A stretch of 64,000 nucleotides of DNA. It comes from Cenococcum geophilum 1.58. Its lineage: Eukaryota > Ascomycota > Dothideomycetes > Gloniales > Gloniaceae. The notes below the pieces were generated by a model. It ran no database searches. It saw only the letters and a list, made by a program, of their open reading frames with translations, and was not told where the DNA came from. The DNA lies in NCBI GenBank assembly GCA_001692895.1, contig KV748191.1:868001-932000 (forward strand). The letters run 5' to 3'. How positions within the stretch are numbered: the first letter of the stretch is position 1; each line of letters begins with the position of its first letter. This document shows positions 3,845 through 43,437 of the stretch, in pieces. The translations under genes and the position numbers were made by a program.

Positions 3845-4064
3845 TTAGGAAATTTTTTTTGGGGCTCGTTGTTGCGGTTTACGGCAAATTGCCATAAACC
3901 GTACGGTTGCGGCAGGTGGATATGGTCGATAGCAATTTATACAAAACGCACGTTTTGCAACAAGTTTGCAGCACCCTAATAGTAATTTACGCGTTTTATA
4001 ACAAATTTATAGCACCTAATAGTAAATTACGGCAAAATGCTACCCTATAAATAAATAGTGCGCA

Positions 4065-4195
4065 AACTATACAAATTGTACGAATTGTAAAAACTGTACG
4101 AATTGTACGAATTGTAAAAACTGTACGAATTGTACGAATTGTACGAATTGTACAAATTGTACAAATTGTAAAAACTGTACAAATTATAACTATAT
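4065..4195. repeat. 10-bp tandem array
   Basis: Tandem copies of ACGAATTGTA with variants ACAAATTGTA and AAAAACTGTA, about 12 units. It lies just inside the left end of the inverted-repeat element, after a short hairpin around 3875-3905. Confidence 0.8.
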
Positions 4196-4350
4196 AAATT
4201 ATAATTATATTATATAATAACCAAATTATTATATATTTCTATAGATTTCTATAGTATACTTTTAAATATATTTATATTATAACTATATAAAATGTAGAGC
4301 TATCTACTTTAGGCGTTAAGGGGAAGCCTCTTACGGAGGCTTTAAATTAT
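4196..4350. other. AT-rich spacer in the inverted-repeat element
   Basis: About 155 bp of AT-rich sequence between two tandem arrays. Nothing recognisable is seen. Confidence 0.6.
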
Positions 4351-4550
4351 TTGCCTACCTACCTACCTGCCTGCCTGCCTACCTGCCTATCTACCTACCT
4401 ACCTACCTGCCTACCTGCCTACCTACCTACCTACCTACCTACCTGCTTGCCTGCCTACCTACCTACCTACCTACCTGTCTATTTGTCTATACCTACCCGT
4501 CTATACCTACCTATCTATGCCTACCTATCTGTGCCTACCTGTCTATGTTA
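4351..4550. repeat. Tetranucleotide array (TACC/TGCC)
   Basis: A run of about 45 tetranucleotides, mostly CTAC and CTGC, degrading towards the right into CTAT/CTGT variants. A 98-residue open frame across it is a by-product of the repeat. A short GATC run (4558-4573) follows. Confidence 0.9.
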
Positions 4551-4599
4551 CCTTAATTCGATCGATCGATCGAATTGTTTATCGTATTCGCTGGCTGGT

Positions 4600-4992
4600 C
4601 GTTCAAACGGTTGTCGTGTGGCTCTGGCGACGGTCGTGTGGCGATAACGACGGTCGTCTGGCTCTGACGGTCATCTAGCTCTGGCGACGGTTATCTGGCT
4701 CCGGCGACGGTCGTCTAGCTCTTACGACGGTCGTCTGGCTCTGACGGTCGTCTAGCTCTGGCGACAGTCATCTAGCTCCGGCGACGGCCGTCTAGCTCTG
4801 ACGACGGTCCGTCTAGCTCTAACGACGGTCGTCTAGCTCTAGCGACGGTTATCTGGCTCCGGCGACGGTCGTCCAGCTCTAGCGACGGTTATCTGGCTCC
4901 GGCGACAGTCGTCTAGCTCTAACAACGTCGTCTGGCTCTAACATCGTCTAGCTCTGGCGACGGTCGTCTGGCTCCGGCGACGGTTGTCTACT
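4600..4992. repeat. ~20-bp GC-rich minisatellite
   Basis: About 20 copies of a 20-bp unit close to GGCGACGGTCGTCTAGCTCT, mixed with 17-bp variants that lack three bases. Variation is mostly C/T and G/A. A unique stretch of ~160 bp (5000-5160) separates it from the next array. Confidence 0.85.
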
Positions 4993-5159
4993 AGCTGTCG
5001 TTCTGGTGTCCTTCCTAGGTAGGGAGGATAGTAAGGAAGGGTAAAAATGAGGTGGCTACCTAGGTGTATATAGGGGGTATACTTAGCAGAGGCACGTGTA
5101 GAGGCTATTGGAATATAGTGGACCTAATAGTAGTGTGGTCGCGCGCATATACACAAAGG

Positions 5160-6415
5160 CTTTGTATAGAAGCTTCGCGTTGAGCCTCCGTATGCAGAGC
5201 TTCGCGCAGAGCCTCGTGTAGAGCTTCGCGCAGAGCCTCGTATAGAGCTTCGCGCAGAGCCTCGTGTAGAGCTTCGCGCAGAGCCTCGTGTAGAGCTTCG
5301 CGCAGAGCCTCGTGTAGAGCTTCGCGCAGAGCCTCGTGCAGAGCCTCTATATGTAGAGCTTCGTGTAGAGCTTCGTAGAGCTTTATGCAGAGCTTCGTGT
5401 AGAGCTTCATATAGAGCTTTGTGTAGAGCTTCGTGTAGAGCTTCGTGCAGAGCCTCTGTACGTAGAGCTTCGTGTAGAGCTTCGTGTAGAGCTTCGTGTA
5501 GAGCTTCGTGTAGAGCTTCGTGTAGAGCTTTGTGTAGAGCTTCGTGCAGAGCTTCGTATAGAGCTTCGTGTAGAGCCTCGTGCAGAGCCTCTGTACCCAG
5601 AGCTTTGTGTAGAGCCTCGTGTAGAGCCTCGTGTAAAGCTTCGTGTAAAGCTTCGTGCAGAGCTTCGTGTAGAGCTTTGTGTAGAGCCTCTGTACGCAGA
5701 GCTTCGTGTAGAGCATCGTGCAAAGCTTTGTGTAGAGCNTCGTGTAGAGCTTCGTGCAGAGCTTCGTACAGAGCTTCGTGTAGAGCCTCGTGCAGAGCCT
5801 CTGTACCCAGAGCTTTGTGTAGAGCCTTGTATAGAGCCTCGTGCAAAGCTTCGTGTAAAGCTTCGTGCAGAGCTTTGTGTAGAGATTCGTGTAGAGCTTC
5901 GTGTAGAGCTTCGTGTAGAGCCTCTGTACGTAGAGCTTCGTGTAGAGCATCGTGCAAAGCTTCGTGTAGAGTATCGTGCAAAGCTTCGTGTAGAGCTTCG
6001 TGTAGAGCTTCGTATAGAGCCTCATGCAAAGCTTCGTGTAGAGCTTTGTGTAGAGCTTCGTGTAGAGCTTTGTGTAGAGCTTCGTGTAGAGCTTCGTGCA
6101 GAGCTTCGTGCACGAATTCGTGTAGAACTTTGTGTAGAGCCTCGTGCAGAGCCTCTGTACGCAGAGCTTTGTATAGAGCCTCGTGTAAAGCCTCGTGCAA
6201 AGCTTCGTGTAGAGCTTCGTGTAGAGCTTCGTGTAGAGCTTCGTATAGAGCTTCGTATAGAGCTTCGTGTAGAGCTTCGTGTAGAGCTTCGTGTAGAGCT
6301 TCGTGTAGAGCTTCGTGTAGAGCTTCGTGTAGAGCTTTGTGTAGAGCTTTGTGCAGAGCTTTATATAAAGCCTTATGCAGAGCTTTATATAGAGCCTTAT
6401 ATAAAGCCTCTGCAT
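5160..6415. repeat. 12-bp minisatellite with periodic 15-bp variant units
   Basis: About 100 tandem copies of a 12-bp unit (GAGCTTCGTGTA). Because the unit is a multiple of three and lacks stops in most frames, three long frames stay open: a CRAS repeat on the plus strand and LYTK and ALHE repeats on the minus strand. None looks like a real protein. A 15-bp variant starting CCTCTGTAC occurs at 5453, 5588, 5687, 5798, 5921 and 6152. All spacings equal a multiple of 12 plus 3. One N lies near 5739. Confidence 0.95.
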
Positions 6416-6678
6416 TAGGAATTTTTTTTTTAGGCATATTGTTGCAAGCGAAAATTGGGGTCTGCAAAACCTGCGTAAGTTGTAATTTTGGTAATTTATA
6501 GCGATTTGCAGCAATTTGCTACAAATATATAGATAAGGTAGGCGCGTGTATAGGTAGCCTATGTATTTATAGCAAATTGCTGCAAATCGCCGCAAATTGC
6601 CAAATTTGCAACTTACGCAGGTTTTGTAGACCCCGATTTTCGTTTGTAATAACGTGCCTAAAAAAAAATTTCCTAATA
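6415..6678. repeat. Large palindrome with ~115-bp arms
   Basis: The left arm (about 6415-6530) and right arm (about 6562-6678) are inverted copies of roughly 90% identity around a ~30-bp centre. Both start TTAGGAA plus a T run and AGGCA, and both contain AAAACCTGCGTAAGTTG. Differences between the arms are mainly transitions. The structure could form a long hairpin and supplies the right terminus of the surrounding element. Confidence 0.85.
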
Positions 6679-6688
6679 TATAAATTAG

Positions 6689-6859
6689 TGTCGGAATGTT
6701 AGTTATGTGACGTGGTTACAAGACCATGAAGTGAGACTAGCTAATCTGACCTTGGAGCAAACCCCTATTTCTAGATATCAATTAACTACTAACTTTAACA
6801 CCGCATACGTACCACTATAAGTGATATTCGTGTATATTGATAAAGTGAGTATACCGATA
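6689..6859 (+). repeat. 5' LTR of copia fossil 1
   Basis: 171 bp, starting TGTCGG. It is about 90% identical to the LTR at 12,846-13,016, with transitions only. Confidence 0.92.
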
Positions 6860-13021: not shown

Positions 13022-14344
13022 GTATGTCCCTATTATATATAGCAATAGTATTATTTTAGGCATAGTCTGTAGTTATAGAGCCTTATATTATATATAAGGC
13101 CATTTATAATTATTCCTTTTTAGATAAAAAGTTTTTGTATTCCTAGTATATATATACTAAAAATAAGGGAGCTATATGTTTATTTAGTGTCTCCCTAGTA
13201 AATCTCTAGCAACCCTTATATTCTCTTATTATTTTTATTATATACTTAGTTTATATTTTTCTATTAAAGCTATTAGATTTAGGTGATTTTAAGTCCTAGT
13301 ATAAGGCGTTCTATTTATCTTACTATTTTCTATATAATTGCTATATTATCTGCCTAGCGTCCCTTTTTTACCCTAAGGCTTATAGGAACTACTAGGACTT
13401 TAACTAGATAATCCTTATAGAGTACTTTTATACTAATACGTTCTCCTAGCCTATTCTCTACCCTTATAGCTCGTTCCTTTACCTATTAGTCCTTTAGGGT
13501 AACTCTAATATCTCTGCTCTTAAGGTATTAGACTATAATAGCGTTATAAACCTCTTTATATATCTTTATAAGGACTTCTATTTCTAATTATCCCCTAAGC
13601 CCCTCTACTTATTCTATATTTGGTTATATTATAATTATATACTTAGTTATTAACTTAAAGGGAATAGGTTCCCTGTGCTATAAAAGCGTAGCTATAGTAG
13701 CCTAGGTGCGGTTTGCCGGTAAGGGAGGGTTATACTTATTTTTAACTTTGCTTAGCCGTTAGAGGATTTAATTAAGGGTTTACTAGAGGGGCGCCTAAGG
13801 TTTGCTAAACTAGCGGAGCCATTTTACTAGCTATATTAGTTCGTTATAGCTAATGGTTACTCCCCCGCAATTCTAGATACTAAATATATTTAATAGGCTT
13901 TATATTTTATTAGATGCCTTCTTAATAGAGATATTTCCGCTTTATAGTGTGGTATTCGCCCGTCTTTATTATAGAGGGCTATTGCTAGACGTAGTTCTAG
14001 CGGTCGCGCGCGAGTGCGAGCCACCGTTGTTTAATATGTGCCTCCCCTATAATGTATGTATTTTAGGGGGATTCTCTAGGTGTTTTTTAGGGTTCTTTTA
14101 GTTGGTTTTGGTCTTTTTAGGCTAGGTGTAGTAAGAGCTCCTTTCCGGTATATTTTTTTAGGGAGATAATTAGGTGACCGTTATAAGCAAGTAGGGTTAC
14201 CCCTTTAACGTAGTAATTACTACCTCCTTTAGCTAAGTATATATTTAAATCTAAATCTAAGCTTTAATGTAGTTATTATCCCTTAATTAAAGATTATATA
14301 AGCTAGTAATTATAAATAAGGATTAAAATCTATAAGTAAATATC
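13022..14344 (-). mobile_element. LINE, 5' portion: ORF1 (gag-like)
   Basis: Minus-strand sequence resembling ORF1 of ascomycete LINEs. It contains SRDIRVTLKD and a downstream KVLYKDYLVKVLVVPI block typical of the ORF1 core. It runs at its left end into GLIYN..LYNYRLCLK and a Cys-knuckle start next to GHT (about 13,022-13,045). That knuckle is completed at 3838 and below, on the far side of two inserted elements, so this and 1-3844 are one LINE. Its 5' end is not resolved; it may lie near 14,300 or continue past the gypsy insertion at 24,305. Confidence 0.75.
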
Positions 14345-14559
14345 TGTGAGGGGATCTTGTAGACAGGGGGCTATAAGGACACAATTGGAATAGGATAGAT
14401 TGGTGAGAGAGACGAATCCTTAAGGAGGTAAGGCCTCTGGAATCGTGGAGACTATATACTATGGGTATGTGCCTCTAGTATATAACCGGCGACTATCTAA
14501 GGGGCGTCCGGGGGTTGTCCTGAGGGCAACCTAAGGTGTCCGCAATAATATCCCTTACA
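14345..14559 (-). repeat. 3' LTR of the gypsy fossil
   Basis: 215 bp, about 89% identical to 24,085-24,299, with transitions only. It is preceded by ATATC. Confidence 0.92.
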
Positions 14560-19800: not shown

Positions 19801-21384
19801 CTAAATAGATGACGGTCGACTAGTCCCCCTAAGGCTCTATAAATATATAATTAGAATGTTGTAGGCGCATTAGCTAACCCGAAAGGCATTACTAGATACT
19901 TAAAGTAGCCGTATTAGGTCTTAAAAGCGGTCTTTTACTTATCCCCTTTTTTGATATAGAGCCTATAATAGGCGTCTTATAGATCTAACTTTATAAAGAT
20001 CTTTACCCTAGATAGTTAATCCAGCATTTTACTAACTAGTGGTAGTGGGTAACGGTTCTTAATTATAATCTTGTTAAGACCGTAATAGTTTACGTATAGC
20101 CTTATAGTTTTATCTAGTTTTAGGATAAAGAGAATCGGCGCGCCTAACGGCGACTTACTAGGCCGGATCCATCCCTTTTTTAGTAAGCTATTAAGGTACT
20201 CCCGTAGGATCTTAAGCTCTTTACGCGAGAGGTTATATATAGGAAGGTTCGGCGGTTATTTGCCTTCTTCTAGATTAATTATATAATCGTACTCCAAGTT
20301 CTATAGTAGGACTTTAGCTCTCCTACCTAAAAATACCCTTAGTAAGTCCCTTAGGCCTACTGGAATATTTAACAAATTGGGGTCGCGTTTATCCTTTATG
20401 TTATTATCGGGTAGGTTTTAAAGCTCCCTCAGGATGCTCGCGGGCAGTGTTATGCGCTATAGTAGTTACTTATACATAGTTGCCACTGTATATCGAACCG
20501 TTTCATACAGTAGCTAATAGAGGGTAGGGAACTCCTTAACGCAGCGTTTGAGGTGCCGTAGTATACTCTTTATATATTGCTTAAGCCAGAGTAACTTATG
20601 GCGGTTAAAGTATCTTATAAGATCCTTAAGATCGCCGCCTCCCTATAATATCTCCGCGACCTATCCAGTAGTTCCCTATAGGGTCTCCGTTATAGAGGGG
20701 TTGTCACCTATACTAAGCTCTATATCTATCTTATTATCAAATAGGGGTTAGATTTAATACTCCTTTAGGTATAGAGCGTATACTATTTTACCTAGGGCTA
20801 TATTCTCTAGGATGTCCTTTAAGCTTATTAGTAATATACGCCCTTCCGAATCTTTATCGTTCTACTATTTAAAGGCTCCTATTTTAAAGCGTATCTTAAA
20901 ATCTACTTCCGCAAGCTAAGGGTATCTAAGGATAAGGTTATAACCTATAAAGTTAGCCACCTAGAAGGGTTGCGGGCCGACTACCTTGGTGTGGTTATGT
21001 ATATTAGCCACTAACACTATAAGCTTATAGGCACTGTATAGCTTAATCCAATGCTTATTTAGGAAGCCTGTGATAGGTTTCCGCTACCTTTATAATGGGA
21101 TGAGTTTATACTCTTTTACCAAATTATATTATATAAGATTGATTTCGGCGCCGCTATTATATAGTACTTAGAACTGTTGTACCTCACCTATAGGGAGTGT
21201 CATTTCCAGCTTAATAGTAATACGGAGAGTCTTTCCTTCTATATCTTACCCTAGTTATAGCCGGGAGAGGTCCGCAACTAGGGCTTTTCTTTTTTTAGAT
21301 TATTAGTGCGGTTGTCGCCCTACTTATTTTTCTAATAAGATCTGCCTTTAGAGTTTTCTCTTAACTTCTTAGAGTGTTTCCGTA

Positions 21385-22410
21385 GGCCGTCGAAATCGGA
21401 CTCTGCACCTGTACGTGGTGATGGCTACGAACCTGGTCTTCGAAGTTCAGATCCAGAGCCAACGCAGAGACGTCGCACAGCGTGCGGACAGGACCTGGTG
21501 GTGGTTGTGGGCGTTAAGGGCGGTAGTGAAAGTTTTTTCGGATAGTGAGATCTTGAAAACCACTACTATTAGCTCTCTATAATACGACGACTACTACGCT
21601 GTTCTCCTATCCAGGGCACCTGTACGATCCAACATGGATGTACAGTTTTCGATAACATCCCCCGACCCCCAGTAGAAGGCATTAACGACCTCACATTAAC
21701 GAATAAGCAAGCGCGAACGAACGAACGAATGAGTAAATATACGGCCCCTCCTAACCCCCAGGGCAATCGCCCGCGGAGCATGCGGTCACTCGCCGTACTG
21801 CCGTAATACTACTGAAACCGATAGCCGGATAACCCCGTATAGTTTTCCTTGTCTCCTCTTAACGGAGTAGTGCCCTTAGAGAGGGCCTAGTGACTGGGGC
21901 CTAGGCACAAAAGATACCTAGATACACACACACATCCCGCTTTCGTCTTTTGGTATTAGGATAGTAGAACAGATAAATCCCCCTTACGCCTTCGATAGGC
22001 CTTAGGGGGGGGGGAGGCATGGCGTATATAGCAATAGTTAACAGGAGATAGTATATAGGGGGTAGTTAAGATATAGGACACAACTATAAGCATACAGCAG
22101 TCGATCGGCAAGGCCTAGCTAGGACGTAGTGAACCCTAGCTTTGGATAAGCTAGAGAAGGAAGCAGTGGTTCCTAAGAAGTTCAAAACATCCAAGGAGGA
22201 GGACGAGCAGTAGGCCCGCAGGGCCGCTATTACGTGCAGGCATAGCAATTCGGGGTTTTTCATCCTACTAAGGTGGCTCATAGGGTTTTTCCTCCCCCCC
22301 AATAGTAAGGGGTTTTTCCCGTCAATATTACTTTCCCCTTATGTACGGAGTAGTCTGCGTGGGCTTAAATAGGATCTGTATTAGACGTTAATTAAAGAAT
22401 CTACTACTAC
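21385..22410 (+). mobile_element. 1.03-kb SINE-like element, copy A
   Basis: An insertion into the gypsy element, bounded by a perfect 15-bp direct repeat TAGAGTGTTTCCGTA (21,370-21,384 and 22,411-22,425). It ends in a CTACTACTAC tail next to the right repeat. It is GC-rich and CpG-containing, unlike its RIP-mutated host. It shares with copy B (32,482-33,487, opposite strand) a 5' block (GAAATCGG..CTCTGCACCT and CGCAGAGACGTC), a middle block (AAAAGATACCTAG) and a 3' block with repeated GGGTTTTTC and TAGTCTGCGTGG. Only short ORFs are present. A long target duplication and simple-repeat tail imply LINE-type mobilisation, but at 1 kb it is long for a SINE. No clear tRNA promoter boxes were found. 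Confidence 0.7.
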
Positions 22411-24084
22411 TAGAGTGTTTCCGTAAAGGTGCCGGATAGGTATCGGGTTGGCCCTAGGAGTTTTTCCCGTTATTTAAGGTTCCTAACTTTAACCCTTTTA
22501 AAGTTCTCTTTAAGAACGGCTTCTTTAAAGGTTAGGTCTGCCCTACGTTACTACTAAAGTGCCTACGCTTCTAGTAACCCCCTAGCTTTCTACCGGAAGA
22601 GGTCTGGTTCCTTACTATATCTTTAGCGTTTAGAACTACTCGTTCGAAATCCGCATATATAGTAATCCGCGATAAGGCTCCCACGCGCTTTATTTCGTTA
22701 TAAATTACTAGCTTAATTCTAGCCTAGATAAACCTAATCTTCTTTTTCTTACGGATGCTACTATTCTTGTTTTTAAAGGGCTTTAAATCCATCTATTAAG
22801 CATAAGTTTTTATAAAGTTTATAAACTAGCGGAAGTTATAGCGGTCTAGCTATATCCTATTCCAGAATAGCTCTATATTATTATATTGTATAATATACGG
22901 ATCTTAAGTCTATTTCTTTAGGAAGGTTTGCAGCTATAGCTATATAGTGATTTGCTCTTTATTAAGCTAATTAAGTGCGATCTAGTTTAGTGATTGGTAT
23001 TTAATTTTACTAATAATCTAGCGTATACGCTCTTTAGTATTATCTTATATTATTAGCATCTTAAAGAAGTTGTTTACCTCACAAACCCAATTATCTAACT
23101 ATTAGGTGTTAGGTCTGTAGTAAAGTTCTAAACTACCAGAGGCCTTAGCCAGTCAGTCTATATCCTTTTTCTATTTATAGCGTAGATAACTCTCTAAGTC
23201 TTCTACACCTCTTTAAGTAGGTACTAGGTAGCTCCTAAAAAGCCCTTAGCCTTAACTAGATTATAAAAGAATTTACCTAGCTTAGATTAGACCCTACTAG
23301 ATCTAGATTTACCCTTAAAGGGTTCTAATATATTTATTAGTAGCTTCCTTCTATATAGCTTCTAAGAGCCTTACAACAGCTTCCTAATATCTATCTTAAA
23401 GGAGATTAATATAGGGCTCTTAACCTTTTAAACTCGGGCCTAGGGAGGCTCCTACTATAGAGGTAGTGTTAGTACTAGTAGCTAGTATAGGCTTCCCAAC
23501 AAGGCTCGGGTCCTAAGTTAGTAATTAGCTTAGATTACCTAAAGGGGTAGGCCTACTTAGCTCGTGAGTAGTCTATATACCGCCACTATACTAATTATAG
23601 GCCGGTGGTCTTCCGGGAGAGTTCCGGTTGGTTCCCTAGTTGGATATATTAGTATATTCCTCTAGCATTTCTAGCTTAGGGGAAAATCTTAAAGTCGCCT
23701 CTAGCGCTTAATCTTTTAATTGGCTTAGGTGGGGCCGGAGGGGTTCTAGTTACTTTTCAGCAGTATTATAACCGTTATAGAGGGTATCTGCGTTTTCCTT
23801 AGTGGTAACCGTAGGTGTATAAGAGTCTTCGAGCTCCTAGAGCATCTGGGTATTAGGGCTCGTTCGGCCGTCTTGCCTAGAGGGTTATATTATCGCAATC
23901 TCTCGCTGTCGGAGGGACCTTCCTGCCTTTACGCGACGGCTTTCTATAAGGTATCTATAGGGTTTCTATTTAGGTCGTCGCGAGATTTTTAAGGGAGGAT
24001 AGTGGTTATAAATAAAAGATATAAATAAATAATCTGGTCCTTAGAGCCGACTGCCCTTCTAAAAAAGAGTAGGAAGGATTTAAA

Positions 24085-24299
24085 TATAAGGGGATCTTGT
24101 AAATAGGGGGCTATAAGGACACGATTGGAACAGGATAGATTGGTAAGAGAGACGAATCCTTAAGGAGGTAAGGCCTCTGGGATTGTGGAGACTATATACT
24201 ACGGGTACGTGCCTCCGGCACGTAACCGGCGACTATCCGAGGGGCGTCTGGGGGTTGTTTTAAGGGCAACCCGAGGTGTCCGCAATAATATCCCTTACA
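24085..24299 (-). repeat. 5' LTR of the gypsy fossil
   Basis: 215 bp, ending CCCTTACA on the plus strand and followed by ATATC. Confidence 0.92.
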
Positions 24300-27147: not shown

Positions 27148-27152
27148 CCATC

Positions 27153-27446
27153 TTTCAGCCAGGCAGGTATTAAGACAAATGACGTTCGCTGACTGGTAGG
27201 TAGAGACACAGAATTGAATGAGTGATCTATCTATTAAAGGTGGCTCTCGAGGATCTATATATACACGAGGAAGATGCTAGAATAGGAAAGGAGGGAGGTT
27301 TAGGCAATAGAGATATCTACTAAGATATACGAAATACGAGGGTAAGCACTAGGGTAGTCTTACGTAGGGTACTAGGCAGCAAAGACAATTGTAAAACGAT
27401 CTAAAGCACATCCGATTTAAGCCAATAGCTACTTCCGTGGCTAATA
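27153..27446 (-). repeat. 3' LTR of copia fossil 2
   Basis: 294 bp, preceded by CCATC. It matches the split LTR at 32,398-33,711 with transitions only. Confidence 0.9.
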
Positions 27447-30400: not shown

Positions 30401-32397
30401 ATTCTATAAGATGTTTACTATATTATCTTTCCTAGAACATATAGTTTATAAAGTAGTACACTATATAGAGTTCTTCCTCTGTCCATCTTAACCACTTTAA
30501 CTCCGTCTAATATAGTTAGCAGATAATTTACTAACTCTATATTACAGTATAGTAAGCGTTAATACTATACTTTATATATTAAGGTCTTAAAGAATCTAGT
30601 AGATATAGCGTAGGTAGTAGGAGTAGGTAGTAAGCAGGCGATAATATTAATAAGGTAGAGACCTCTGTATTCTATAAGGTTTCTAAATAGGCTTCCATTA
30701 TCTTTATAGCGTAGATAGTTTATAAATTAGTCTATAATTACTCCAACCTTACAGAGCTTTACTGCGGATATTAAATTAGTATAAAAATACGGAGTATATA
30801 CTATGTTCCTTAATATCAGATACCAAATTAGACGTTATTTACCTACCTTAAGGGCCAAGTTAATATTACTATATCCATAGATTTCTACCCTAGAATCTCC
30901 AGCCGTTACTATAGACCTGCTTGGCTTAAAATCACGGAAGTATCTAATATCGTTATAGAAGTGGGTATCTGCTATAGTATTGTACCCCCAGGCATTAATT
31001 AAGGACAGATCTGGATATTCCTGCGATGATAATAATAAGTAGGATGTTGTTATAGCCGCCGCTATAGCTCGAGGTCGGTCTAGATCCTTAATCTTTTTAG
31101 TAGTAGATAAAGCTAATAGAGACGTCCTTAACCTAGGACCTTCCTTCTTAATCTACTTAAGCCTCCTATTATAATACTACTTGTTTATTAGGACCTTAAG
31201 CCATTCTTAATACTTCCTTAAATACTTATTATTTAGTATAAAGTTTATACCTTAAAGAGACTAAAACAATTGCTTGCAATTCCTTAACTTATAGGGTAGA
31301 CCATAAGCAAAGCACTTTAACTTAGGTAACTAAGAAGGTGCTAGGGTAGTAGACGTTATAGGATCTACAGCTAGCTGCCCTAAGAGTATAGCATAGGCGT
31401 TACGTCCCGTATTCGGATGCTTATAGAGGAGGTTAAATTCCTTAATTATTGTTAACATTTTAAGCTTCTTTAACCTCTTTGCTACCTTTTAGATAAAGGC
31501 ATAATATAGAGCTGGATAGATCTCCTTATAGTCCTAGATAAAGGCTCGTATAACGCTGCCTTTTATTACCTCTATTAACCCTTCCTCTAGCTCTTCGCCG
31601 TTTTATATAATAGTAATATAAAGCTAAAGCCATAATTCTAGAGTCTGGTGTTTAGGCCCTTATTTCCGTTTCTTAAGATTATTTAATACCATTTACTACA
31701 ATATAGCTTAAGATGGCTTTGCTACCTTCCTTAGCTATCTTATAATTAAATATAGTATAGTAAGATTTTTAAGATACCCTAAGAAGTTGGTGCCTATAGT
31801 GGTATATAAGAGTGCTATAAACATATGGAGCTTTTCTTCCCGCTTTAGGTAGTCCTGTCATTAGAGCTTATAGAGCTTAAAGAGCATTCTCTATATCTCT
31901 AGAGATTGCTAAGTTTGTTATCCTTAACTTAATAACCTAGGTATAGCTATTCTAGTAGATAATGGAGTTGCTACTGGAGCTGTAGGAGCCGCTACTAGTG
32001 CTACAGGAGCTACAGGATCCGCTGCTGGTGCTGCAGGATCTACAGGTGCTGCTGCAGGTGCTGTAGGAGCTGCTACTATCGAAGGTATAGCTGGCTCATT
32101 ATTTTCTTTAATTTCGTTCTCCGTCTTATCTAGGTTAATATAGTCCCAAATCTTCACAAAACTTGCTTCTTAGCGGATAAATTAAAACTATATAGGCTAG
32201 CCTTTCTGGGTTAGCAAAAGAGGGTTTATAGAGTCCTTAGTTGCCATATTAGCTTTTATTTTAAGGTTATATAAAGAGACGCGCTTACGCATAAAGCACG
32301 CGATATTTCNTAACGAACTATACTTAAAGAGGCTTAGTAGTAGTCGTCTAGCCACTAAGATCTCCCTAGTGCTTAGAAGGTTACTAGGCTTATAACT

Positions 32398-33711
32398 TTT
32401 AGCTAGGCAGGTATTAAGACAAATAACGTTCGCTAACTGGTAGGTAGAGATATAGAATTGAATAAGTAATCTGTTTATTAATAATAATAAATTCAATTTA
32501 CCGTCCGACCCGGTCCCCCTAATGGGTCCACGCAGACTAATTCCTATGGTAAAAACTCAATATACACACTGAGAAAAACCCATTTTTGGGTGAACAAAAA
32601 ACCCCCAAGGGAAACGTAAGAGGTAATACTTCCAGATAGCATTCGTACTACATCAACGGGGGGAAAAACACCGTCAGGTTACTGCTCAGAGGCCCCTAAG
32701 GAAGGTGTCTTGAATGCCTGTCTTGCCCTATCTGCCTTTTAAACCACTTTCCCTATCTATTATTGCCTATGTGGAATTATATACCTGCCCTTCCCCTACT
32801 CCGCCCTATATGTATACATATATGCTACTTATAGCTTCCCTACTTACAGCATAATCTAATCTTATTATTATACCTTCTAGTATAATCTACTGCCCTCCTA
32901 TATAATGCATTTATATCCAGTCCTGTATAACCTTTTTTAAAACTAAAACAACGGGACAGTAATCGGTGCTAGGTATCTTTTCCTAGGGCCCCAACCTAGG
33001 TCCTTTATAACACAAAGGAGAATATATACCGCGTGCGGCAGGTCCAAGCTGTTAGGTAATAATAAAGGCGGGTGGATAAGAGGCCTTAAAAGGTAATGGA
33101 CGAGAGGCTTTCGGAAGGTAGGTGGATAAAGAGGCTCATCGCGGGCTTTAGCCTGCAAGGCGTACGTATATACTATATAGGGTCGTGCAGCATGGCGTAC
33201 CATGCTGTGTAGAAGGAGGACGCCGATTTAGATGCCGTGATTTGAGCAGGTCAACCGTATGTGAAGACGAGTTGGTCGTGTTCCTGAGGCCTTGTTGGGG
33301 CTCACCCTCCCAACAGAAACTTCTTTCTTCGCGATCACCCGTCGCAGCGCCAGCGGTGCGCAGCCGTACGGACGTCTCTGCGTTTGCTCTGGTAGTNTAT
33401 TGACACGATCCTAACGGAACATCAATAGTACTGCCAGGTTCCCGGGCTCCACCGCGTGGAGGTGCAGAGGCCGATTTCATGAAGCCCTAATCTGTTTATT
33501 AAAGGTGGCTCTTAAGGATCTATATATATACAAGGAAGATGCTAGAATAGGAAAGGAGGGAGGTTCAGGCAACAGAGATATCTACTAAGATATACGAAAT
33601 ACGAGGGTAAGCACTAGGGTAGTCTTACGTAGGGTACTAGGCAGCAAAGACAATTGTAAGACGATCTAAAGCACATCCGATTTAAGCCAATAGCTACTTC
33701 CGTGGCCAACA
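32398..33711 (-). repeat. 5' LTR of copia fossil 2, split by an insertion
   Basis: The LTR halves 32,398-32,481 and 33,488-33,711 flank a 1006-bp insertion. The shared 15 bp TAATCTGTTTATTAA is the insertion's target duplication. Confidence 0.9.
32482..33487 (-). mobile_element. 1.01-kb SINE-like element, copy B
   Basis: Minus-strand relative of copy A, inserted in an LTR and bordered by the 15-bp direct repeat TAATCTGTTTATTAA (32,467-32,481 and 33,488-33,502). On the minus strand it begins near CATGAAATCGGCCTCTGCAC and ends in a TTATTATTAT tail beside the repeat. Its left part is AT-richer; its 5' part is GC-rich and CpG-containing. Because the pre-insertion LTR length is recovered exactly, the limits are secure. 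Copies A and B are clearly diverged, so they are not a recent duplication. No ORF over 110 codons is credible. Confidence 0.72.
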
Positions 33712-34357: not shown

Positions 34358-35275
34358 ATGGCCCTATCGCTTCCGGACCTTCCAGTAAATCTTATCTACC
34401 GTATACTTAACTTCATTCCGAGCAAAGAAAACGCGATTATACAAGTTCACGAGACGTGCAGAGCCCTAGCACTCAAAACCACAGAACTCTTCGCAAGGAA
34501 CTACTTCTCATCGGGTTCATGGCGCCTAACGCGAAGAACTGTCTCAGCTCTTACTGGAATTTCGAAGCATAAATATTTAAATCCAGCTTTAAAAGACATT
34601 ACACTTTTCCGATATACCAACGAATATGAAGATGGCTTGAGATACTCGCTGGCTGAAGGGATTGATATTAAAGAACTTGGCCAGAGCCTACAAACATTAG
34701 CGAACCTACGGTCACTTAATCTGGCGGATTTCAACTTCAGAGATACCGAAAAATTTCTCGGCGACCTGCTTGCTACGTTATCGCTTCCCTCAATAACTGA
34801 CTTTGGGCTATTAAAAGTTCTCGTACACGCCAGTGACATTGGAAAATTTATTACTCTGCACAGTAACACCATCAAAACTGTTGTGTTTGATGAACTAGAC
34901 CTTATTGCCCCAGCGAAGGGCGCTTGGTCTGGGCTCTTAAGTTCCTTGACTTGTCTTAAAGATGTAGAGCTCATTCACATTCGTAAGCCACTAAAATGTG
35001 GCATTTACGTCAGATTCGAGCCTGAGGACGAAGAAGATCCTACATTCCACAGATACGTAGAGCTGGACACGAGATATGACGAATGTGGCTGCAACATGTG
35101 CCAAAAATACTCCGATTTACACTGGAGCTTTGCGGAATATAGACTAGGCACGGATGCAGAGAAGGAGGATTGGACCAGAGGACTTGAACTTATGGTGGCT
35201 GGAAGTAGAACTGTTGATTTTGTGTGCAGTTATGGTAAAGACTGGCGTATGGTCAAACGGGGAGGTCAAGCATGA
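34358..35275 (+). CDS. F-box-like protein
   Basis: An intronless frame of 305 residues. The N terminus reads LPDLPVNLIYRILNFIP, followed by HETCRALA about 15 residues later. That is the spacing of an F-box, which binds Skp1 in SCF ubiquitin ligases. The rest has weak leucine-rich spacing (LRSLNLADFNF, LSLPSITDFGLLKVL, LTCLKDVELIHI at about 115-210), as in fungal F-box proteins with degenerate LRRs that choose substrates. A CGCNMCQKY cluster near residue 248 is unassigned. The start has a good context (ACTATGGCC) and directly precedes the F-box. It is the first intact gene beside the repeat island. A repeat begins 13-15 bp after its stop and probably forms its 3' UTR. The substrate is unknown. 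Confidence 0.75.
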   Translation: MALSLPDLPVNLIYRILNFIPSKENAIIQVHETCRALALKTTELFARNYFSSGSWRLTRRTVSALTGISKHKYLNPALKDITLFRYTNEYEDGLRYSLAEGIDIKELGQSLQTLANLRSLNLADFNFRDTEKFLGDLLATLSLPSITDFGLLKVLVHASDIGKFITLHSNTIKTVVFDELDLIAPAKGAWSGLLSSLTCLKDVELIHIRKPLKCGIYVRFEPEDEEDPTFHRYVELDTRYDECGCNMCQKYSDLHWSFAEYRLGTDAEKEDWTRGLELMVAGSRTVDFVCSYGKDWRMVKRGGQA

Positions 35276-35287
35276 GAACTCTGTAGT

Positions 35288-35545
35288 ATTGCAAGAGGCT
35301 CTAGAGCCTCACTATATACACCAGATAGGTGGCGAAAAGGCTGACGACGACGACGTCGTCACTTAGTCAGTAATAGGTAATGGAAATAGGTAATGAGACA
35401 TTCGATGAGACTTACGATTAAGAAAGAGGGTAATTAGTCATAAGTTAAGACGCAACTGAGACATTGTACGTAAAGCCGATCTTGGTCGACAGATCTTAAT
35501 CCATAACTCGTGGCAACATCTCTTCTACAGATTCCAGCTAGAGAA
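35288..35545 (+). repeat. Palindrome-bearing dispersed repeat, copy 1
   Basis: It shares with 43,230-43,437 (inverted) the core GCAAGAGGCTCTAGAGCC, followed by TCACTATATACAC, TAGGTGGC and AAAGGCTGACG. More weakly, AGGTAAT..AAA, AGGGTAATTA and TCGACAGA also match. GAGGCTCTAGAGCCTC (35,295-35,310) is a perfect palindrome. The outer limits are approximate. Confidence 0.65.
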
Positions 35546-36419: not shown

Positions 36420-36531
36420 ATGCGGTAAGGATTAGCGCTAAGGGTGGCAGATTTACCGCAGAAAACGACGTCACAAACCGCCAAAAACGGGGGTCATTAT
36501 GCCGTCGGATCTTTTAAAGTAGTTAATTTTA

Positions 36532-37225
36532 ATGGTCGCCACTAATCGCACACCCCCTAAATGATATTCGTACACCCCCCAATTAATATTCGTACACCCC
36601 CTACCTTATTTAGTTTAGACACTTCCTCACTAAGTTTAGACGCTTCCTCACTAAGTTAGATCATTACGTGCGTTTAACTTATTTGCGCCTATATCGCGAA
36701 AATCAAAGTACGAGCCCATAGTATAGCTAGTATTTCGCTTAAATGCTAAGGACTTTCTACAAGTTAACGCGATTGGCAGTTGTAGAGCCAGCTATAGAGT
36801 TAATTAGCCGACTATTACGATGCTCTATAATTATAGGCTCTTAAATATAAAGTAGAGGTGTTAATTTAGGTCCCACCGGGCGCAGGCGCGGGCGTGGGCG
36901 CGAAGCAGAGGTGGCAGTACCTAAATTAGTTTGTGCGACGCCTTATAAAGCACTGCACAATCTAATTAATTAACTTAGGCATAATCCAAATTTAGACTCT
37001 ACTACTTATACTATAACTAAAATTAAGACTTAATCGTAATGTTGCTGTTATAAAACTTACATGGCGCGCACTTTAATTTTCGCGATGTAAGCGCAAACAA
37101 GTTAAACGCACGTAATGATTTAACTTAGTGAGGAAGCGTCTAAACTTAGTAAGGAAGTGTCTAAACTAAATAAGGTAGGGGGTGTACGAATATCATTTAG
37201 GGGGTGTGCGATTAGTGGCGACCAT
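36532..37225. mobile_element. ~0.69-kb foldback (long inverted repeat) element, copy 1
   Basis: Both ends read ATGGTCGCCACTAATCG inward. The arms extend about 165-180 bp (36,532-36,712 and 37,062-37,225) at over 90% identity. Within each arm GTTTAGACGCTTCCTCACTA recurs in tandem. The left arm has one extra 22-bp copy of the block ending ATTCGTACACCCCC. The centre is CG-rich. A related element lies at 41,108-41,738. No transposase; short TTTA on both sides may be the target duplication. Confidence 0.8.
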
Positions 37226-37585
37226 TTTAATTAAGAGGTAAGTTGTGTGGTAGGATAAGCGATTTAGGCTCGGTTGACCACATGACTTTGTATTTTGAGT
37301 TGAGGCTACCCCGTGCAGGGATTGTGCATTAGCGCTTATAACCACGGTCAAACACGTTAGACTAGCGTGAATTTAATTTTCCAAGCTTTCAGCAATCTGC
37401 CCAATCATAATCCCATCATTTGAAGTATTAATTACTACCCATTCCGGCCCCTAAATGCATCAATGTTTAACGCCATTGTGCTACGCTTTATGCCATTATA
37501 TTATGCCCCAAAGAAAACCCAGAACTCCGAAATCCAATGAGTCCCCGATGTTGAACTCTCCTTCTAAGTTGGAAACTTCGTTACC
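37226..37585. other. Spacer downstream of the oxidase gene
   Basis: Includes the presumed 3' UTR of the minus-strand oxidase gene. No other feature is seen. Confidence 0.5.
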
Positions 37586-39719
37586 TTATGCCACCCCAAT
37601 AGCCTGCGGGTTCCAGAACACCATTTCTGGATCTACTACTTGCTTGATTGCTAGAAGCCTGTTGTAGGCGTCCGTGCCATAGTACAAGCTATGTGCTGTC
37701 TCCGGATCCAGGCTTGGGTCCACATAATTTAAGTACGCACCGAACTGCGTCTGCGGCTGGGCGTTCTCGATCGCGTCATTCATTCCATCTATAAAGCCAA
37801 TGGTGGCGGACGGAAGTGCGCCTCCTGAGGTGAAACCATAGTTCTGGAAGACCCAGAGCGAAGAGCGATCTGAATAGGAGGAGAATGTGCTATCGCGAGT
37901 GTTAATGGCAGAGCCTGGGCCACCATAGAGGTTTATAATCGAGAACCACGACTGTGGAAGGTCGAGTCAGTAACCAGCAGATATAAGAGGACAGGATGAA
38001 AAGAAATGCGTACGCTTGGCTCAGCAGTTTGGGTTATGTAAGTGAAGTAGCTGTTCAAGGCTGCTGCGGTGAGCGGACCACTTTCAGGGACGGTGATGCT
38101 CTTGGCAAACTGTGGCTGATTAGACTACTACGTTTTTGTGGTGGGAATGGACTACGAACAAAGGTGTCATGAGCATTGTAACCAGTTAGTGGCTCTTGTA
38201 ACGAAGCCCCGCCGGACAGCGCGGTTAGACTATCAATCCAGCCAAGGGCTTTAACGCTTGGGGTTGATGAAGGAAGCCCACGCAAGAGTTCTGGCGCGAT
38301 CTATTCGTTTTCAGTAAGCCATCGATGTTGAAGCAGTAAAGAGATATAGAGTCAATAAAAAAGCATATTCGAAGGGGGAGGATTGGGACCAGTGTTAACT
38401 AGCACCAGATGATTTCCAAGTGCTATCGGTATTAAAATTAATAAGGCTGAACCAACCTTCTGATTAAACTCATCTTCAGTTCCAATGAATGTCCCGCCAA
38501 GACTGTAGCCTGATCCATCAAGATAAATTCCGAATCCGAGCCGACCATCAACTACAGAAGCGTTTTGCGCAAAATCTTGGATGTGGAGGAAAGTATTTGT
38601 AAAAGTTCCCTGAGAGCTAAACATGCCAGAAAAGCTGTATGACCAGTTTATGACAGTGGTTGGAGCCGGTTGTGTCTGTAGATAAAAATTGACGACAATA
38701 CCGAATGAATCAGCTGCTCCGCGTAGAGCCTTGAAGGAAGGGCGTTAGCTTTTTCTGAATTTAACCAAAGGAGTCCAAAGGTTTAAAAACCTACCCAATA
38801 AATGTCGGGGTATTCCGTAGATGTAGCATGGATGTAACTGCCGTTTGCAAGCACGACATCTAGTCCAACGATGGTGTCCAGGGCCAATCCCCACAAGCGG
38901 CTATCATAGCCGTAGCCTCCATGAGTGAAGTGACCGCCTATTCCAACACTGAACGAGTGTTAGTTAACGAGACATGAGTATGAAGTTAAATTTCTAATGT
39001 AATCACCCAGGGCAAGTTCCATGCGGTAGAGCTCGCTGTGCTTGGTTGTATATTCCCAGTGCTAAATTTCCAAGTCTCACTCCTCCGCCAACCACAGCAA
39101 TGCCGGTAGTGACATCCACAACGATATTTTGAAGTGGCTCAAGGTCGATCACCATACTGCCATCTTTCCCACCAGAGCTAAATGAGGCGTAGGAATGGCC
39201 ACCGCTTTTCGCCTGAACTTTCACGCCGTACTTGCCCGCACAAACAACAGCATCGGAGATGTGCTGGGGAGTCGTGGGCAAAACTATAACGACAGGCGTA
39301 TACGGTAGGCGTAAGTTGTATGGCTGGGCAAGTTGGGCGAAATTGGGAGAAGAAATGAGACTAATTGGAATATTCTTGTTATTCAAGCAATCTGTTAGGG
39401 TGGTGGTGCTGGCAGTAGGTGTGGCCGAAGATGTTGTCGACCTTGATACAACAGAACTCGAGGTTGGATTGGAAGCACAAGTCCCAAAGGCGGACTGGCA
39501 GCCTGTACCACAGTAGGCATCAGTTGACCCGCACCATCCATAGGCACTGCAACAGCTGCCAAATGATGACCCGAGACACGTATATCCGACTGATCCGCCA
39601 CAGCTCGCGTCTGGAGAGACTGCTCGGGCCTTTAGGGCCGAAGTCGCTGGGGTGGCACTGACCAACCCCAGGGTGAGGAGCAGATTCACCGCTAAAAATA
39701 GATCGAATGCAGGAACCAT
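37586..39719 (-). CDS. Secreted CBM18-AA7 (BBE-type) FAD oligosaccharide oxidase, one apparent frameshift
   Basis: Six exons fit: 39,719-39,007; 38,948-38,795; 38,729-38,457; 38,300-38,160; 38,109-38,014; 37,952-37,586. The product has a signal peptide (to about residue 22), a CBM18 chitin-binding module with eight Cys (about 40-81), a Ser/Thr linker, then a FAD_binding_4 domain. His175 in GGHSY and Cys236 in GTCPGVGIGGH match the two residues that bind FAD covalently in AA7 oxidases. SWFSIINLYGG and YNRLLAIKQVVDPEMVFWNPQ are the BBE C-terminal motifs. The likely role is oxidation of chito- or gluco-oligosaccharides outside the cell. In exon 6, near 37,920, GGTGGGCCCAGG has one base too many for the family reading frame. 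This means a recent pseudogene or an assembly error. A start at 39,791 is also possible. Confidence 0.8.
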
Positions 39720-40740
39720 CTCGGAAATTTTCACTGCACTTGCAGGGGAGGAAGAAAAGGTCTGCAAAAAGATTAAGAGAAGGAGCCCCAACTAGAGTCG
39801 CCTTAAGAGAGTTCCAAGAGAGCCTTGTAGGCGGGATCGAAGGATGATGTAGTCCGGATTGAGAAAGGCGAAGTGAGTTCCAAGGACCAAGAGGTAGTTT
39901 CAAGGGTGAGGTGAAGTGGGTTGAACGAATGTATTTCTGTATGAGGAAACGGGTGAAGATGACCTCTATCGAAGCGGGAGAAATGGTAAATAAGTACATT
40001 TGTCCATCGAAGATATCGCAACAAGCTCAACCTGGTCCGAAAATAAACACGACCTGTGCTATGACGGCAAGAGGCCCGTGGGTATCCTAATAGCCAAGCT
40101 GAGAGTGACACGACCGCGAATACGACTGCACAAAGAAATTAGCAGCGATAGCCAGTGACCTCGCTTGGAAGCCACTTCCCCCAAATTTTAGCACTAATGC
40201 TCTAATGTAACCCAATGAAATGTTACGACGAGGTGCGAAACCTCCAAAAGACAATTCTACCAGCGTGGCTCGGCTCAGCCTTACAATATTGTTCCAATAT
40301 CAGCACCAAGCCTTCTTCGGTTACCTCAGACTTTATTCGCCCGATCGCCTTTACATAATTGCATACCGCCTCTTAGTAATGGTCTACTAGTCAGGAGAAG
40401 TACGATCCAGTGATGAAGAAAAGCCTTTAACACATTACCTACACATGCTACAATATAAGATTTGTTCCATGCAATAAATCTCGACTATCTATTCCCTAAG
40501 AATATAGAAAATTCATGCGAGGTAAATAACAATCCCCTCTATTATATACTAACCACGGCTTAAGGCCTTCCTCCTCCGTCACCACCTCCGTCACCGCTTC
40601 CGTCAACATCCGCCACCTCGTTTCTACCTCTGCCTCTGCCTCTGCCTCTCAACATCCTCCCTTTCTATCCCCTCTCCTCTCCATCTCTCTCCGTATTTGT
40701 GTCATCTCGTTCTACCTATTTATACGTTAGATTTAGCTAT
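39720..40740. other. Intergenic; upstream region of the oxidase gene
   Basis: Moderate GC content. Near 40,625-40,650 is a short TCTGCC hexanucleotide run. The open frames seen overlap on both strands and look fortuitous. Confidence 0.5.
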
Positions 40741-40823: not shown

Positions 40824-42041
40824 CAGTGTGTTCGACAGGCAATCAATCGCAGGCAGGGACCCCCGGTTGCGATTGATTGGCCAAAACCCTGGTTGTGATT
40901 GATCGACTGATGAGAATTAGCTGATTGATTGCGATTGATTGAGATTGATTGCCAAGAATTACCCAATTGGGTAGTCCGTGATAGAGAATCTAGGTACTAG
41001 ATTTTTTGGCAGAGCTTCGCCTTATATAGTAAATATATACTCCAAAAATAAGTCCTCCCTATACTCCTTATTCATCCTCAACCTTTTCTATATACCCTTT
41101 ATTTAAGGATAGCGGTAGAGGGACGCCCCCTAATTAATACGTGGATACCCCCCACTTATTAAGTTTAGACGCTTCCTTATTAAGTTAGAATATNACGTGC
41201 ATTTAACTTGTTTACACCATATCGCGAAAATTAAAGTGCCCGCTATAATAGCTATAACATCACGATTAAGTTTTAATTTTAGTTATAGTATAAATTTAGA
41301 TCGCGCCTAAGCNAATTAATTGGATTATATGGTGCTTTGTAAGGCGCTACGTAAACTTATTTAGGTGCTGCTACCTCTGCTTAATATCTACGAACTGCCT
41401 CTACGAGCACGGCCGCACTCGCGCCGGCGCCGGCGCCCACGCCCACGCGTAGTATCACTAGTATTCTGTTTAAATGCTAATAGCTTGCGATAAGCCAATA
41501 TATTAACGCGAACAAAGCTAGCCGGGTAGCTACGGCGGCGTTTAACAGTTAGAGGCTGAGGTGGATAGGTAAGGCAAATATAAGGTGGTGTTTTGGGTAC
41601 GGGCGCGCAACGGTCGCGTACTAATGCAGATGCAAACAACTTAAATTTATGTAATATTCTAACTTAATTAGGAAGGAACTAAACTTAATAAGTGGGGGGT
41701 GTCTATGTATCAATTAGGNGGTATCNCTTTACCGCTGTTTTAAGTAAATACAGCTAAAACGCGTTTTAGTAGCAGACTATACTAAACCTATTAATCTTGG
41801 CGTATTTAATTGCTATATTCCCAAGCAATTTAATTAGATTAATACTGTATATCTTAACACCAAAAGTCTATTACAAACCACCTCTGTTAGTGAGATTTTA
41901 TATCAATCAATCGCAGGCGCTTGATAAGAAATTCATGGTTGCGATTGATTACTTGATGACAATTCCTGGTTGCGATTGATTGATTATTAATCAATCAATC
42001 GCAGGCGCGCTCGTTGAGCGGCTTGCCTGTCGAACACACTG
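40824..42041. repeat. Inverted structure with CAATCAATCGCA motifs, split by a foldback element
   Basis: CAGTGTGTTCGACAGGCAA at 40,824-40,842 has its exact complement at 42,023-42,041. Next to each are repeated copies of TCAATCAATCGCA or its complement (around 40,841, 40,869, 40,925, 41,906, 41,942, 41,966, 41,990). Foldback copy 2 lies between them. It reads as an older inverted-repeat element, later invaded. Purine-rich tracts border both sides. Confidence 0.6.
41108..41738. mobile_element. ~0.63-kb foldback element, copy 2
   Basis: A diverged relative of 36,532-37,225. The ends share AGCGGTA and a block of Cs, then CACTTATTAAGTTTAG, with arms of ~115 bp. The interior matches the other copy in inverted order (TTAGTTATAGTATAAAT, CTGCTACCTCTGCTT, a CG-rich centre). 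TTTAAG on each side (41,102-41,107, 41,739-41,744) is a candidate target duplication. It contains several Ns. RIP-type C/T differences are common between the arms. Confidence 0.72.
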
Positions 42042-43229: not shown

Positions 43230-43437
43230 CGATCCAGGTCGGATTTTAGTAATTACCCTATTCCTATTCTAGTTGCCTATCACCCTATAACCCAACCAGT
43301 TTCTATTACCTATACCCAATGTTGATCAAGTGGCAATGAGGTAACAGTTTTGGGTCGACGTCGGTATCGACGTCAGCCTTTGCCACCTACTTAGTGTATA
43401 TAGTGAGGCTCTAGAGCCTCTTGCAATGAGACAGAGT
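43230..43437 (-). repeat. Palindrome-bearing dispersed repeat, copy 2
   Basis: Inverted copy of the repeat at 35,288-35,545, with the same GAGGCTCTAGAGCCTC palindrome (43,405-43,420) and flanking CACTATATACAC, TAGGTGGC and AAGGCTGACG. Beyond that the similarity is patchy. Confidence 0.65.

What the first reader, a model, noticed from the sequence alone, without database searches (positions are those of the whole stretch)
21385..22410. A ~1-kb SINE-like family with 15-bp target duplications (copy A)
Copy A and copy B (32,482-33,487, other strand) share blocks at both ends and the middle. Each is bounded by a perfect 15-bp direct repeat and ends in a trinucleotide tail. Neither has a long ORF. 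Both sit in RIP-mutated LTR elements while staying comparatively GC- and CpG-rich. The size, duplication length and tail suggest LINE-driven retrotransposition of a long non-coding RNA. This is the best candidate here for an undescribed element family.
Basis: partly seen in the sequence, partly recalled or inferred. Interest (0 to 1): 0.75.

Follow-up and report, generated by a model that had tools for sequence, protein, structure and literature searches.

The report
Fungal retroelement with self-cutting RNA head
Two 1-kb non-coding jumping sequences in a fungal genome each begin, to the exact base, with what looks like a self-cutting RNA of the hepatitis-delta type, which would explain how their RNA gets a clean front end before being copied back into the genome.

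Summary
Copies A (21385-22410, +) and B (33487-32482, -) have the stated ends, perfect 15-bp target duplications, (CTA)n/(TTA)n tails and shared 5', middle and 3' blocks. For B, the other LTR of the same LTR element is an empty site with one target copy, so insertion is shown.

The 5' block is not a tRNA/pol III head. In both copies it fits a complete HDV-like self-cleaving ribozyme: P1 7 bp, P1.1 2 bp, P2 6 bp, P3 3 bp, P4, L3 UNNNCGN, J4/2 CNAA. Its predicted cleavage point is the first base after the target duplication. P1 and P1.1 differ between the copies, but every pair is kept. A strict descriptor finds these two sites and no others in 64 kb. Rfam's drz-agam-1 matches both, weakly, below its cut-off, and supports mainly the 5' half.

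Best reading: non-autonomous, non-coding, ribozyme-headed retroelements moved by an unseen LINE. They work like the R2 SIDEs of flies and NARTc/SIDER of trypanosomatids. Outside the blocks A and B hardly align, so they are different lineages sharing conserved RNA modules. Cleavage, partner LINE and copy number are untested; no genome is held.

The parts
21385..22410 (+). copy A, 1026-bp non-coding retroelement
   Evidence: exact boundaries between two perfect 15-bp repeats
21370..21384 (+). copy A upstream target duplication
22411..22425 (+). copy A downstream target duplication
21385..21469 (+). copy A HDV-like ribozyme: P1 21385-21391/21420-21426, P2 21401-21406/21464-21469, P3 21407-21409/21417-21419, L3 21410-21416, P1.1 21411-21412/21427-21428, J4/2 CCAA from 21459 (proposed catalytic C)
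   Evidence: Rfam RF01787 and RF02682 sub-threshold
21898..21921 (+). copy A middle block: hairpin CUAGG / loop ..AAAAGAUA / CCUAG
22351..22362 (+). copy A 3' block TAGTCTGCGTGG, starting 60 nt before the element end
22401..22410 (+). copy A (CTA)n tail
32482..33487 (-). copy B, 1006-bp non-coding retroelement
33488..33502 (-). copy B upstream target duplication
32467..32481 (-). copy B downstream target duplication
33376..33487 (-). copy B HDV-like ribozyme; same helices, longer P4 loop, J4/2 CAAA from 33386 (proposed catalytic C)
   Evidence: Rfam RF01787 sub-threshold
32969..32990 (-). copy B middle block with the same hairpin
32528..32539 (-). copy B 3' block TAGTCTGCGTGG
32482..32490 (-). 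copy B (TTA)n tail
27152..27444 (.). uninterrupted LTR carrying the empty target site of copy B

Best explanation
A and B are full-length copies of non-autonomous non-LTR retroelements of a filamentous ascomycete. Their RNA is probably made by pol II, either from a nearby or internal promoter or as read-through. The RNA then cuts itself with a 5' HDV-like ribozyme exactly at the element's first base. The 3' end, with the shared TAGTCTGCGTGG block and a short repeat tail, is recognised by the reverse transcriptase of a resident LINE. That enzyme copies it into a nicked site by target-primed reverse transcription and leaves a 15-bp duplication. Shown: insertion (B by empty site, A by duplication), boundaries, tails, lack of a conserved frame, and a ribozyme fold with compensated P1 and P1.1. 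Inferred: self-cleavage, pol II, 3' recognition and the LINE partner.
For: Descriptor hits in the real window: a general HDV-like descriptor gives 4 hits in both strands of 64 kb, two of them A and B. The strict one, with P1.1, gives 2 hits, both at the TSD-defined ends 21385+ and 33487-. In 44.5 Mb of Markov sequence the strict form occurs 17 times, and 2 times with P2=6 and L3=7. A very loose form without any catalytic-residue rule hits 555 of 127,560 real positions, and both ends are among them.
Covariation: 22 of 22 proposed pairs form in both copies. Four have changes on both sides (2 of P1, both of P1.1) and 2 on one side. Sliding the partners by 1-3 columns drops pairing from 100% to 34-43%.
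Active-site residues: with C at the catalytic place there are 6 hits in the window, and only A and B also have the L3 U..G pair. That G is called highly conserved, pairing with a U, in PMC3774820 (section 12). The catalytic C as first base of J4/2 is from PMC10879173 (section 7).
Rfam: drz-agam-1 matches from model position 1 to 82, beginning at the first base of A and the second base of B. HDV-F-prausnitzii matches A over 21385-21469, my exact ribozyme limits, with GCUAA on GCCAA.
Insertion: empty site with a single target copy.
Precedent: R2/R1 hybrid SIDEs have a 5' ribozyme and 14-bp duplications (PMC3414825, passages). NARTc and SIDER carry Pr77, an HDV-like ribozyme in L1Tc (PMC4035085, Background).
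Against: Rfam scores are low: 17.6 bits (B) and 13.0 bits (A) against a gathering score of 37, and 11.6 against 44 for RF02682. The drz-agam-1 alignments put the 3' half on other bases than my P4/J4/2/P2' (B ends at 33406, mine at 33376), so they support only the 5' half. A gave no HDV match when the whole element was scanned, and in the narrow scan a microRNA model on the other strand ranked above it. Neither copy appears in the whole-window E<=10 list or at gathering. Only two sequences exist, so covariation is thin: 32 of 500 shuffles reach it, and P2, P3 and P4 never vary. The descriptors were written after seeing the copies. Ordinary nested folding of A is no more stable than shuffles (z 0.06), though it cannot represent the pseudoknots. 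With G in place of the catalytic C, copy B's site is also hit once in another register. No LINE was found among the 10 pieces scanned.
Confidence: 0.8

Rival explanations
1. The conserved 5' block is mainly a DNA-level promoter (like the trypanosomatid Pr77), and the ribozyme fold is secondary or inactive.
For: J1/2 (GAAATCGG, 8/8) and the bases just after the ribozyme (ACGTC) are identical in both copies although they lie outside the helices. PMC3414825 (passages) says J1/2 has little effect on cleavage. PMC4035085 (Background) says Pr77 works both as internal promoter and as HDV-like ribozyme.
Against: A promoter does not explain the two-sided changes that keep P1 and P1.1 paired, nor the catalytic C plus the L3 U..G pair in place. 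Both functions together are compatible.
Confidence: 0.13
2. Classical pol III SINE with a degenerate tRNA, 5S or 7SL head.
For: Target duplications, tail and lack of a conserved ORF fit loosely; loose box A matches exist inside (4 in A, 3 in B).
Against: No tRNA in the window; no tRNA, 5S or SRP match in Rfam; no box B within 2 mismatches; T5-T6 runs at +149, +872, +902 and +929 (A) and +820, +887, +910 and +933 (B), which should stop pol III. The tRNA-related SINEs of A. fumigatus are 140-493 bp (PMC5063351, passages).
Confidence: 0.03
3. A and B are unrelated insertions, and the shared blocks, including the ribozyme, arose by chance or convergence.
For: The four blocks cover only 125 nt of about 1 kb. 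HDV-like active sites can converge, according to PMC3774820 (section 17).
Against: Three block scores exceed the best of 200 shuffled controls. Blocks are in the same order at both ends and the middle, and include J1/2 and the sequence after the ribozyme, which convergence of an active site would not copy.
Confidence: 0.04

Closest known systems
R2 and R2/R1 SIDEs of Drosophila (short internally deleted elements)
   Same: Non-autonomous; 5' HDV-like ribozyme that frees the RNA from a co-transcript; 3' end used by a LINE in trans; not pol III; the hybrid type has a 14-bp duplication (PMC3414825, passages).
   Different: Those sit in rDNA and derive from a known parent. Here the sites are inside LTR elements, the parent LINE is unknown, the tail is a trinucleotide repeat, and there is a shared middle hairpin.
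NARTc / RIME / SIDER of trypanosomatids (L1Tc/ingi clade)
   Same: Dispersed non-autonomous elements headed by a conserved 5' module (Pr77) that folds as an HDV-like ribozyme and acts as promoter (PMC4035085, Background).
   Different: Other host group. [quoted passage not shown]
drz-agam-1 (Rfam RF01787), HDV-like ribozyme; recalled as from Anopheles RTE-type LINEs
   Same: Match starts at the element's first (A) or second (B) base. L3 UCCUCGU v UCCACGC (B) and UGUACGU (A); AAAUC in J1/2. By my own reading of the printed consensus its J4/2 is CUAA v CCAA (A) and CAAA (B).
   Different: Scores are far below the family cut-off, and the 3' half of the model is not aligned to my P4/J4/2/P2'. Host and element differ.
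HDV-like ribozyme of a 'cold tolerant fungus'
   Same: HDV-like ribozyme in a fungus, mentioned in PMC3774820 (section 17 part 2), citing Webb and Luptak 2011 (reference seen). I recall the species as Trichoderma atroviride.
   Different: The cited paper is not held, so its sequence and genomic context could not be compared.
AfuSINE families of Aspergillus fumigatus
   Same: Fungal non-coding elements thought to depend on a LINE (PMC5063351, passages).
   Different: tRNA- or 5S-related with pol III promoters; the tRNA-related ones are 140-493 bp with 4-14 bp duplications; the word ribozyme occurs 0 times in that text.

Membership tests
HDV-like self-cleaving ribozyme | nested double pseudoknot P1, P1.1, P2, P3, P4 in the right order and spacing | tested here: met
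   22 of 22 pairs in both copies
HDV-like self-cleaving ribozyme | catalytic C at the start of J4/2 (CNRA) and the L3 U..G pair | tested here: met
   of 6 hits with C in the window only A and B also have U..G. J4/2 starts at that C only if an A is bulged from P4 (inference).
HDV-like self-cleaving ribozyme | score above a curated covariance-model cut-off | tested here: not met
   17.6 and 13.0 bits v 37; none at gathering. Called HDV-like by fold, not a member of RF01787.
HDV-like self-cleaving ribozyme | self-cleavage at the first base of P1 (site as in PMC4908430, opening text) | not testable with these tools
   needs an in vitro assay; the predicted site coincides with the element end in 2 of 2 copies
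non-LTR (LINE-dependent) retroelement | variable-sequence target duplication, 3' simple-repeat tail, no LTR or TIR | tested here: met
   15-bp duplications, tails, empty site for B; the first and last 40 bases share no exact word longer than 5 direct or 4 inverted; no repeat of 40 bp or more joins the ends
SIDE (ribozyme-headed internally deleted LINE) | 5' ribozyme and 3' end shared with an autonomous LINE of the same genome | tested here: inconclusive
   ribozyme fold yes; no LINE in the 10 pieces scanned and no genome to search
SINE (strict) | pol III-type head (tRNA, 5S or 7SL; boxes A and B) | tested here: not met

The most novel reading that the evidence does not exclude
Ascomycete genomes hold a diverse superfamily of dispersed, ribozyme-headed, non-coding retroelements. 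Their bodies turn over almost completely, while three RNA modules are kept by selection: a 5' HDV-like ribozyme with an unusually fixed J1/2 that doubles as promoter, a middle CUAGG hairpin, and a 3' recognition end. They would be moved by a LINE clade not known to carry such ribozymes.
Probability: 0.4. Interest if true: 0.72.

Novelty: new member of a known kind. Interest (0 to 1): 0.6.

Why it matters
Ribozyme-headed non-autonomous retroelements are documented for flies (rDNA) and trypanosomatids in the papers read in part here. My ten searches of the held library (open-licence papers only) listed no report of one in a fungus: of which 21, 36 and 51 showed only the top of longer lists. If confirmed, the ribozyme gives a signature for finding such elements in RIP-eroded fungal DNA where ordinary similarity fails. 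It also explains how elements nested in other transposons keep exact 5' ends, and it puts testable HDV-like ribozymes into fungi.

Tried and rejected
Rfam: no tRNA, 5S, SRP, snRNA or intron match to either element. The non-HDV matches (TLS-PK6, mir-3119, and the snoRNA sR36) are weak and judged chance.

Pattern scans for relatives: viral contigs gave 1 match to one pattern and 0 to two others. Genome contigs (prokaryotes) gave 1 match. Neither L001 nor L002 satisfies even the very loose descriptor around the match; both were set aside as chance.

A third copy in the window: the covariance model built from A and B finds only A and B up to E=10 (default filters). The 3' block with up to 2 mismatches adds two plus-strand sites, 47437 and 55988, not followed up.

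Coding potential: 10 reading-frame pieces from the repeat half were scanned with Pfam, of 95 pieces of 50 aa or more counted. One relevant hit, sub-threshold: Pol_BBD, E 0.0084, in the LTR element hosting B; three others at E 0.057-0.56 were judged chance. That element reads as copia-like and a frame at 20019-20255 as a gypsy-type reverse transcriptase by my eye only; Pfam gave no hit for the latter. A LINE remnant in unscanned pieces is not excluded.

I first judged by eye that A meets a stop early in the frame of B's ORF; one search showed it open for 50 codons, and the frame argument in the observation check replaces it.

Nested folding of the 5' end is uninformative for a pseudoknot. A 3'-end stem is suggested by the two-sequence consensus, but single-sequence folds of A do not show it; I do not claim it.

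Full report
WHAT IS THERE. Copy A is 21385-22410 (+) and copy B 33487-32482 (-). Each lies between perfect 15-bp repeats that occur nowhere else in the window. They end in (CTA)n and (TTA)n. Shared blocks are 45 nt + 22 nt at the 5' end, 46 nt in the middle and 12 nt near the 3' end, 125 nt in all. Two of the scores clearly exceed 200 shuffled controls, the third slightly; the fourth rests on position. The rest aligns no better than a forced alignment would give (51% overall).

INSERTION. The window holds an LTR pair, with matching parts 27152-27444 and 32396-33709. Copy B splits the second. The first is uninterrupted and has a single copy of the 15-bp target, 3 bases changed, at the matching place. 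The two LTRs differ at 18 positions, all transitions, as RIP would give. A lies between another LTR pair, 14334-14559 and 24074-24299; no empty site for A was seen in the window. B is therefore younger than its host element, and A probably is too; yet A and B are very different from each other. Distinct lineages must have been moving in this genome.

THE HEAD FITS AN HDV-LIKE RIBOZYME. Reading from the first base after the duplication, A gives P1 GGCCGUC / GAUGGCU, P2 CUCUGC / GCAGAG, P3 ACC / GGU, L3 UGUACGU, J4/2 CCAA(C). B gives P1 GGGCUUC / GGAGCCC, the same P2 and P3, L3 UCCACGC, J4/2 CAAA(C). P1.1 is L3 GU with AC in A and CC with GG in B. All 22 pairs form in both. Four changed on both sides and two on one side; P2, P3 and P4 do not vary. 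Sliding partners by 1-3 columns destroys the pairing; 32 of 500 shuffles reach the observed values, which is weak because there are only two sequences. The L3 G, described as highly conserved and paired with a U in PMC3774820 (section 12), is present in both with its U. Following the false-positive control of PMC10879173 (section 7), I put each base in the catalytic place: C gave 6 hits, A 5, G 2 and U 0 in the window. Only A and B (C), and one G hit that is copy B in another register, have the L3 pair.

CHANCE. The strict descriptor occurs 17 times in 44.5 Mb of Markov sequence, 2 of them with the P2 and L3 lengths seen here. That is about 4e-7 per position, and both hits in the window fall on bases fixed beforehand by the duplications. 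The descriptors were written after seeing the copies. A very loose one without catalytic residues hits 555 of 127,560 real positions (0.44%), so two of two ends by chance is about 2e-5.

RFAM. drz-agam-1 (RF01787) is the only family at E<=10 for the whole of B (17.6 bits, E 1.3). In the ribozyme alone it leads (E 0.14), before a trivial sR36 match (E 8.7). In the ribozyme region of A it comes second (13.0 bits, E 1.7), behind a microRNA model on the other strand (E 0.94) and before another HDV family, RF02682 (11.6 bits, E 3.4). All are below the curated cut-offs. Whole A gave no HDV match, and neither copy shows in the whole-window lists. The drz-agam-1 alignments agree with my model in the 5' half only. 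RF02682 on A spans exactly 21385-21469 and aligns J4/2 as I do. Rfam alone would not carry the claim; position, strand and compensated pairs do.

HOW IT PROBABLY WORKS. [quoted passage not shown] cleavage at the 5' junction is reported for fly R2 and for R4, L1 and RTE clade ribozymes (PMC3774820, section 17). The same logic fits here: cut at +1, 3' end recognised by a LINE enzyme, target-primed copying, 15-bp duplication. For comparison, a Tad-1 clade LINE of another ascomycete has 12-bp duplications (8 of 11 sequences; PMC4522978, passages). Pol III is unlikely: no box B, and T5-T6 runs inside. J1/2 (GAAATCGG) and the ACGTC just after the ribozyme are identical in both copies although they lie outside the helices. 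As with Pr77 of trypanosomatids (PMC4035085, Background), the same stretch may also work as a promoter. This is inference.

WHAT IT IS NOT. Not a tRNA/5S/7SL SINE, no LTRs or terminal inverted repeats, and not conserved as protein: B's 110-codon ORF starts inside the ribozyme, A lacks the ATG, and the two conserved 5' blocks stand in different relative frames in A and B.

HOST. Sec16, 2EXR, a P4-ATPase, a choline transporter and RIP-like bias suggest a filamentous ascomycete (inference). The species is unknown and no genome is held.

NOVELTY. The architecture is that of SIDEs and NARTc. A fungal HDV-like ribozyme has been reported before (PMC3774820, citing a paper not held). My ten literature searches listed no fungal ribozyme-headed non-autonomous element (listings and abstract openings seen; papers named above read in part). 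Filed as a new member of a known kind, with the partner LINE and activity open.

Noticed in passing
window 4034-6715: Four kinds of minisatellite side by side (9-, 8-, about 20- and 12-bp units); the 12-bp array is reported with 64 register copies and keeps open frames of 349-536 codons on both strands.
   Followed up: no
window 36523-37234 and 41111-41736: Two related fold-back structures with 152- and 106-bp inverted arms (91% and 82% complementary) and shared arm sequence (I1, I3, I5, I6, D13); look like members of one hairpin or MITE-like element family.
   Followed up: no
window 35268-35336 and 43379-43447: A 69-bp inverted repeat pair, 86% complementary, 8 kb apart in the gene-rich half.
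   Followed up: no
window 61622-62201: 72-bp and 33-bp tandem repeats within an open frame of 264 codons (61433-62224), near an HNH_2 domain ORF (60418-61191).
   Followed up: no
window 21370-21384 and 33488-33502: Both target sites read CT just before the duplication and T at its first base, and the first 2-3 bases of the duplication match the tail unit (CTA or TTA), as if the tail grew by slippage on the target; only two cases.
   Followed up: partly
window 39006-39791: One open frame combining a chitin-recognition domain and an FAD-binding domain.
   Followed up: no
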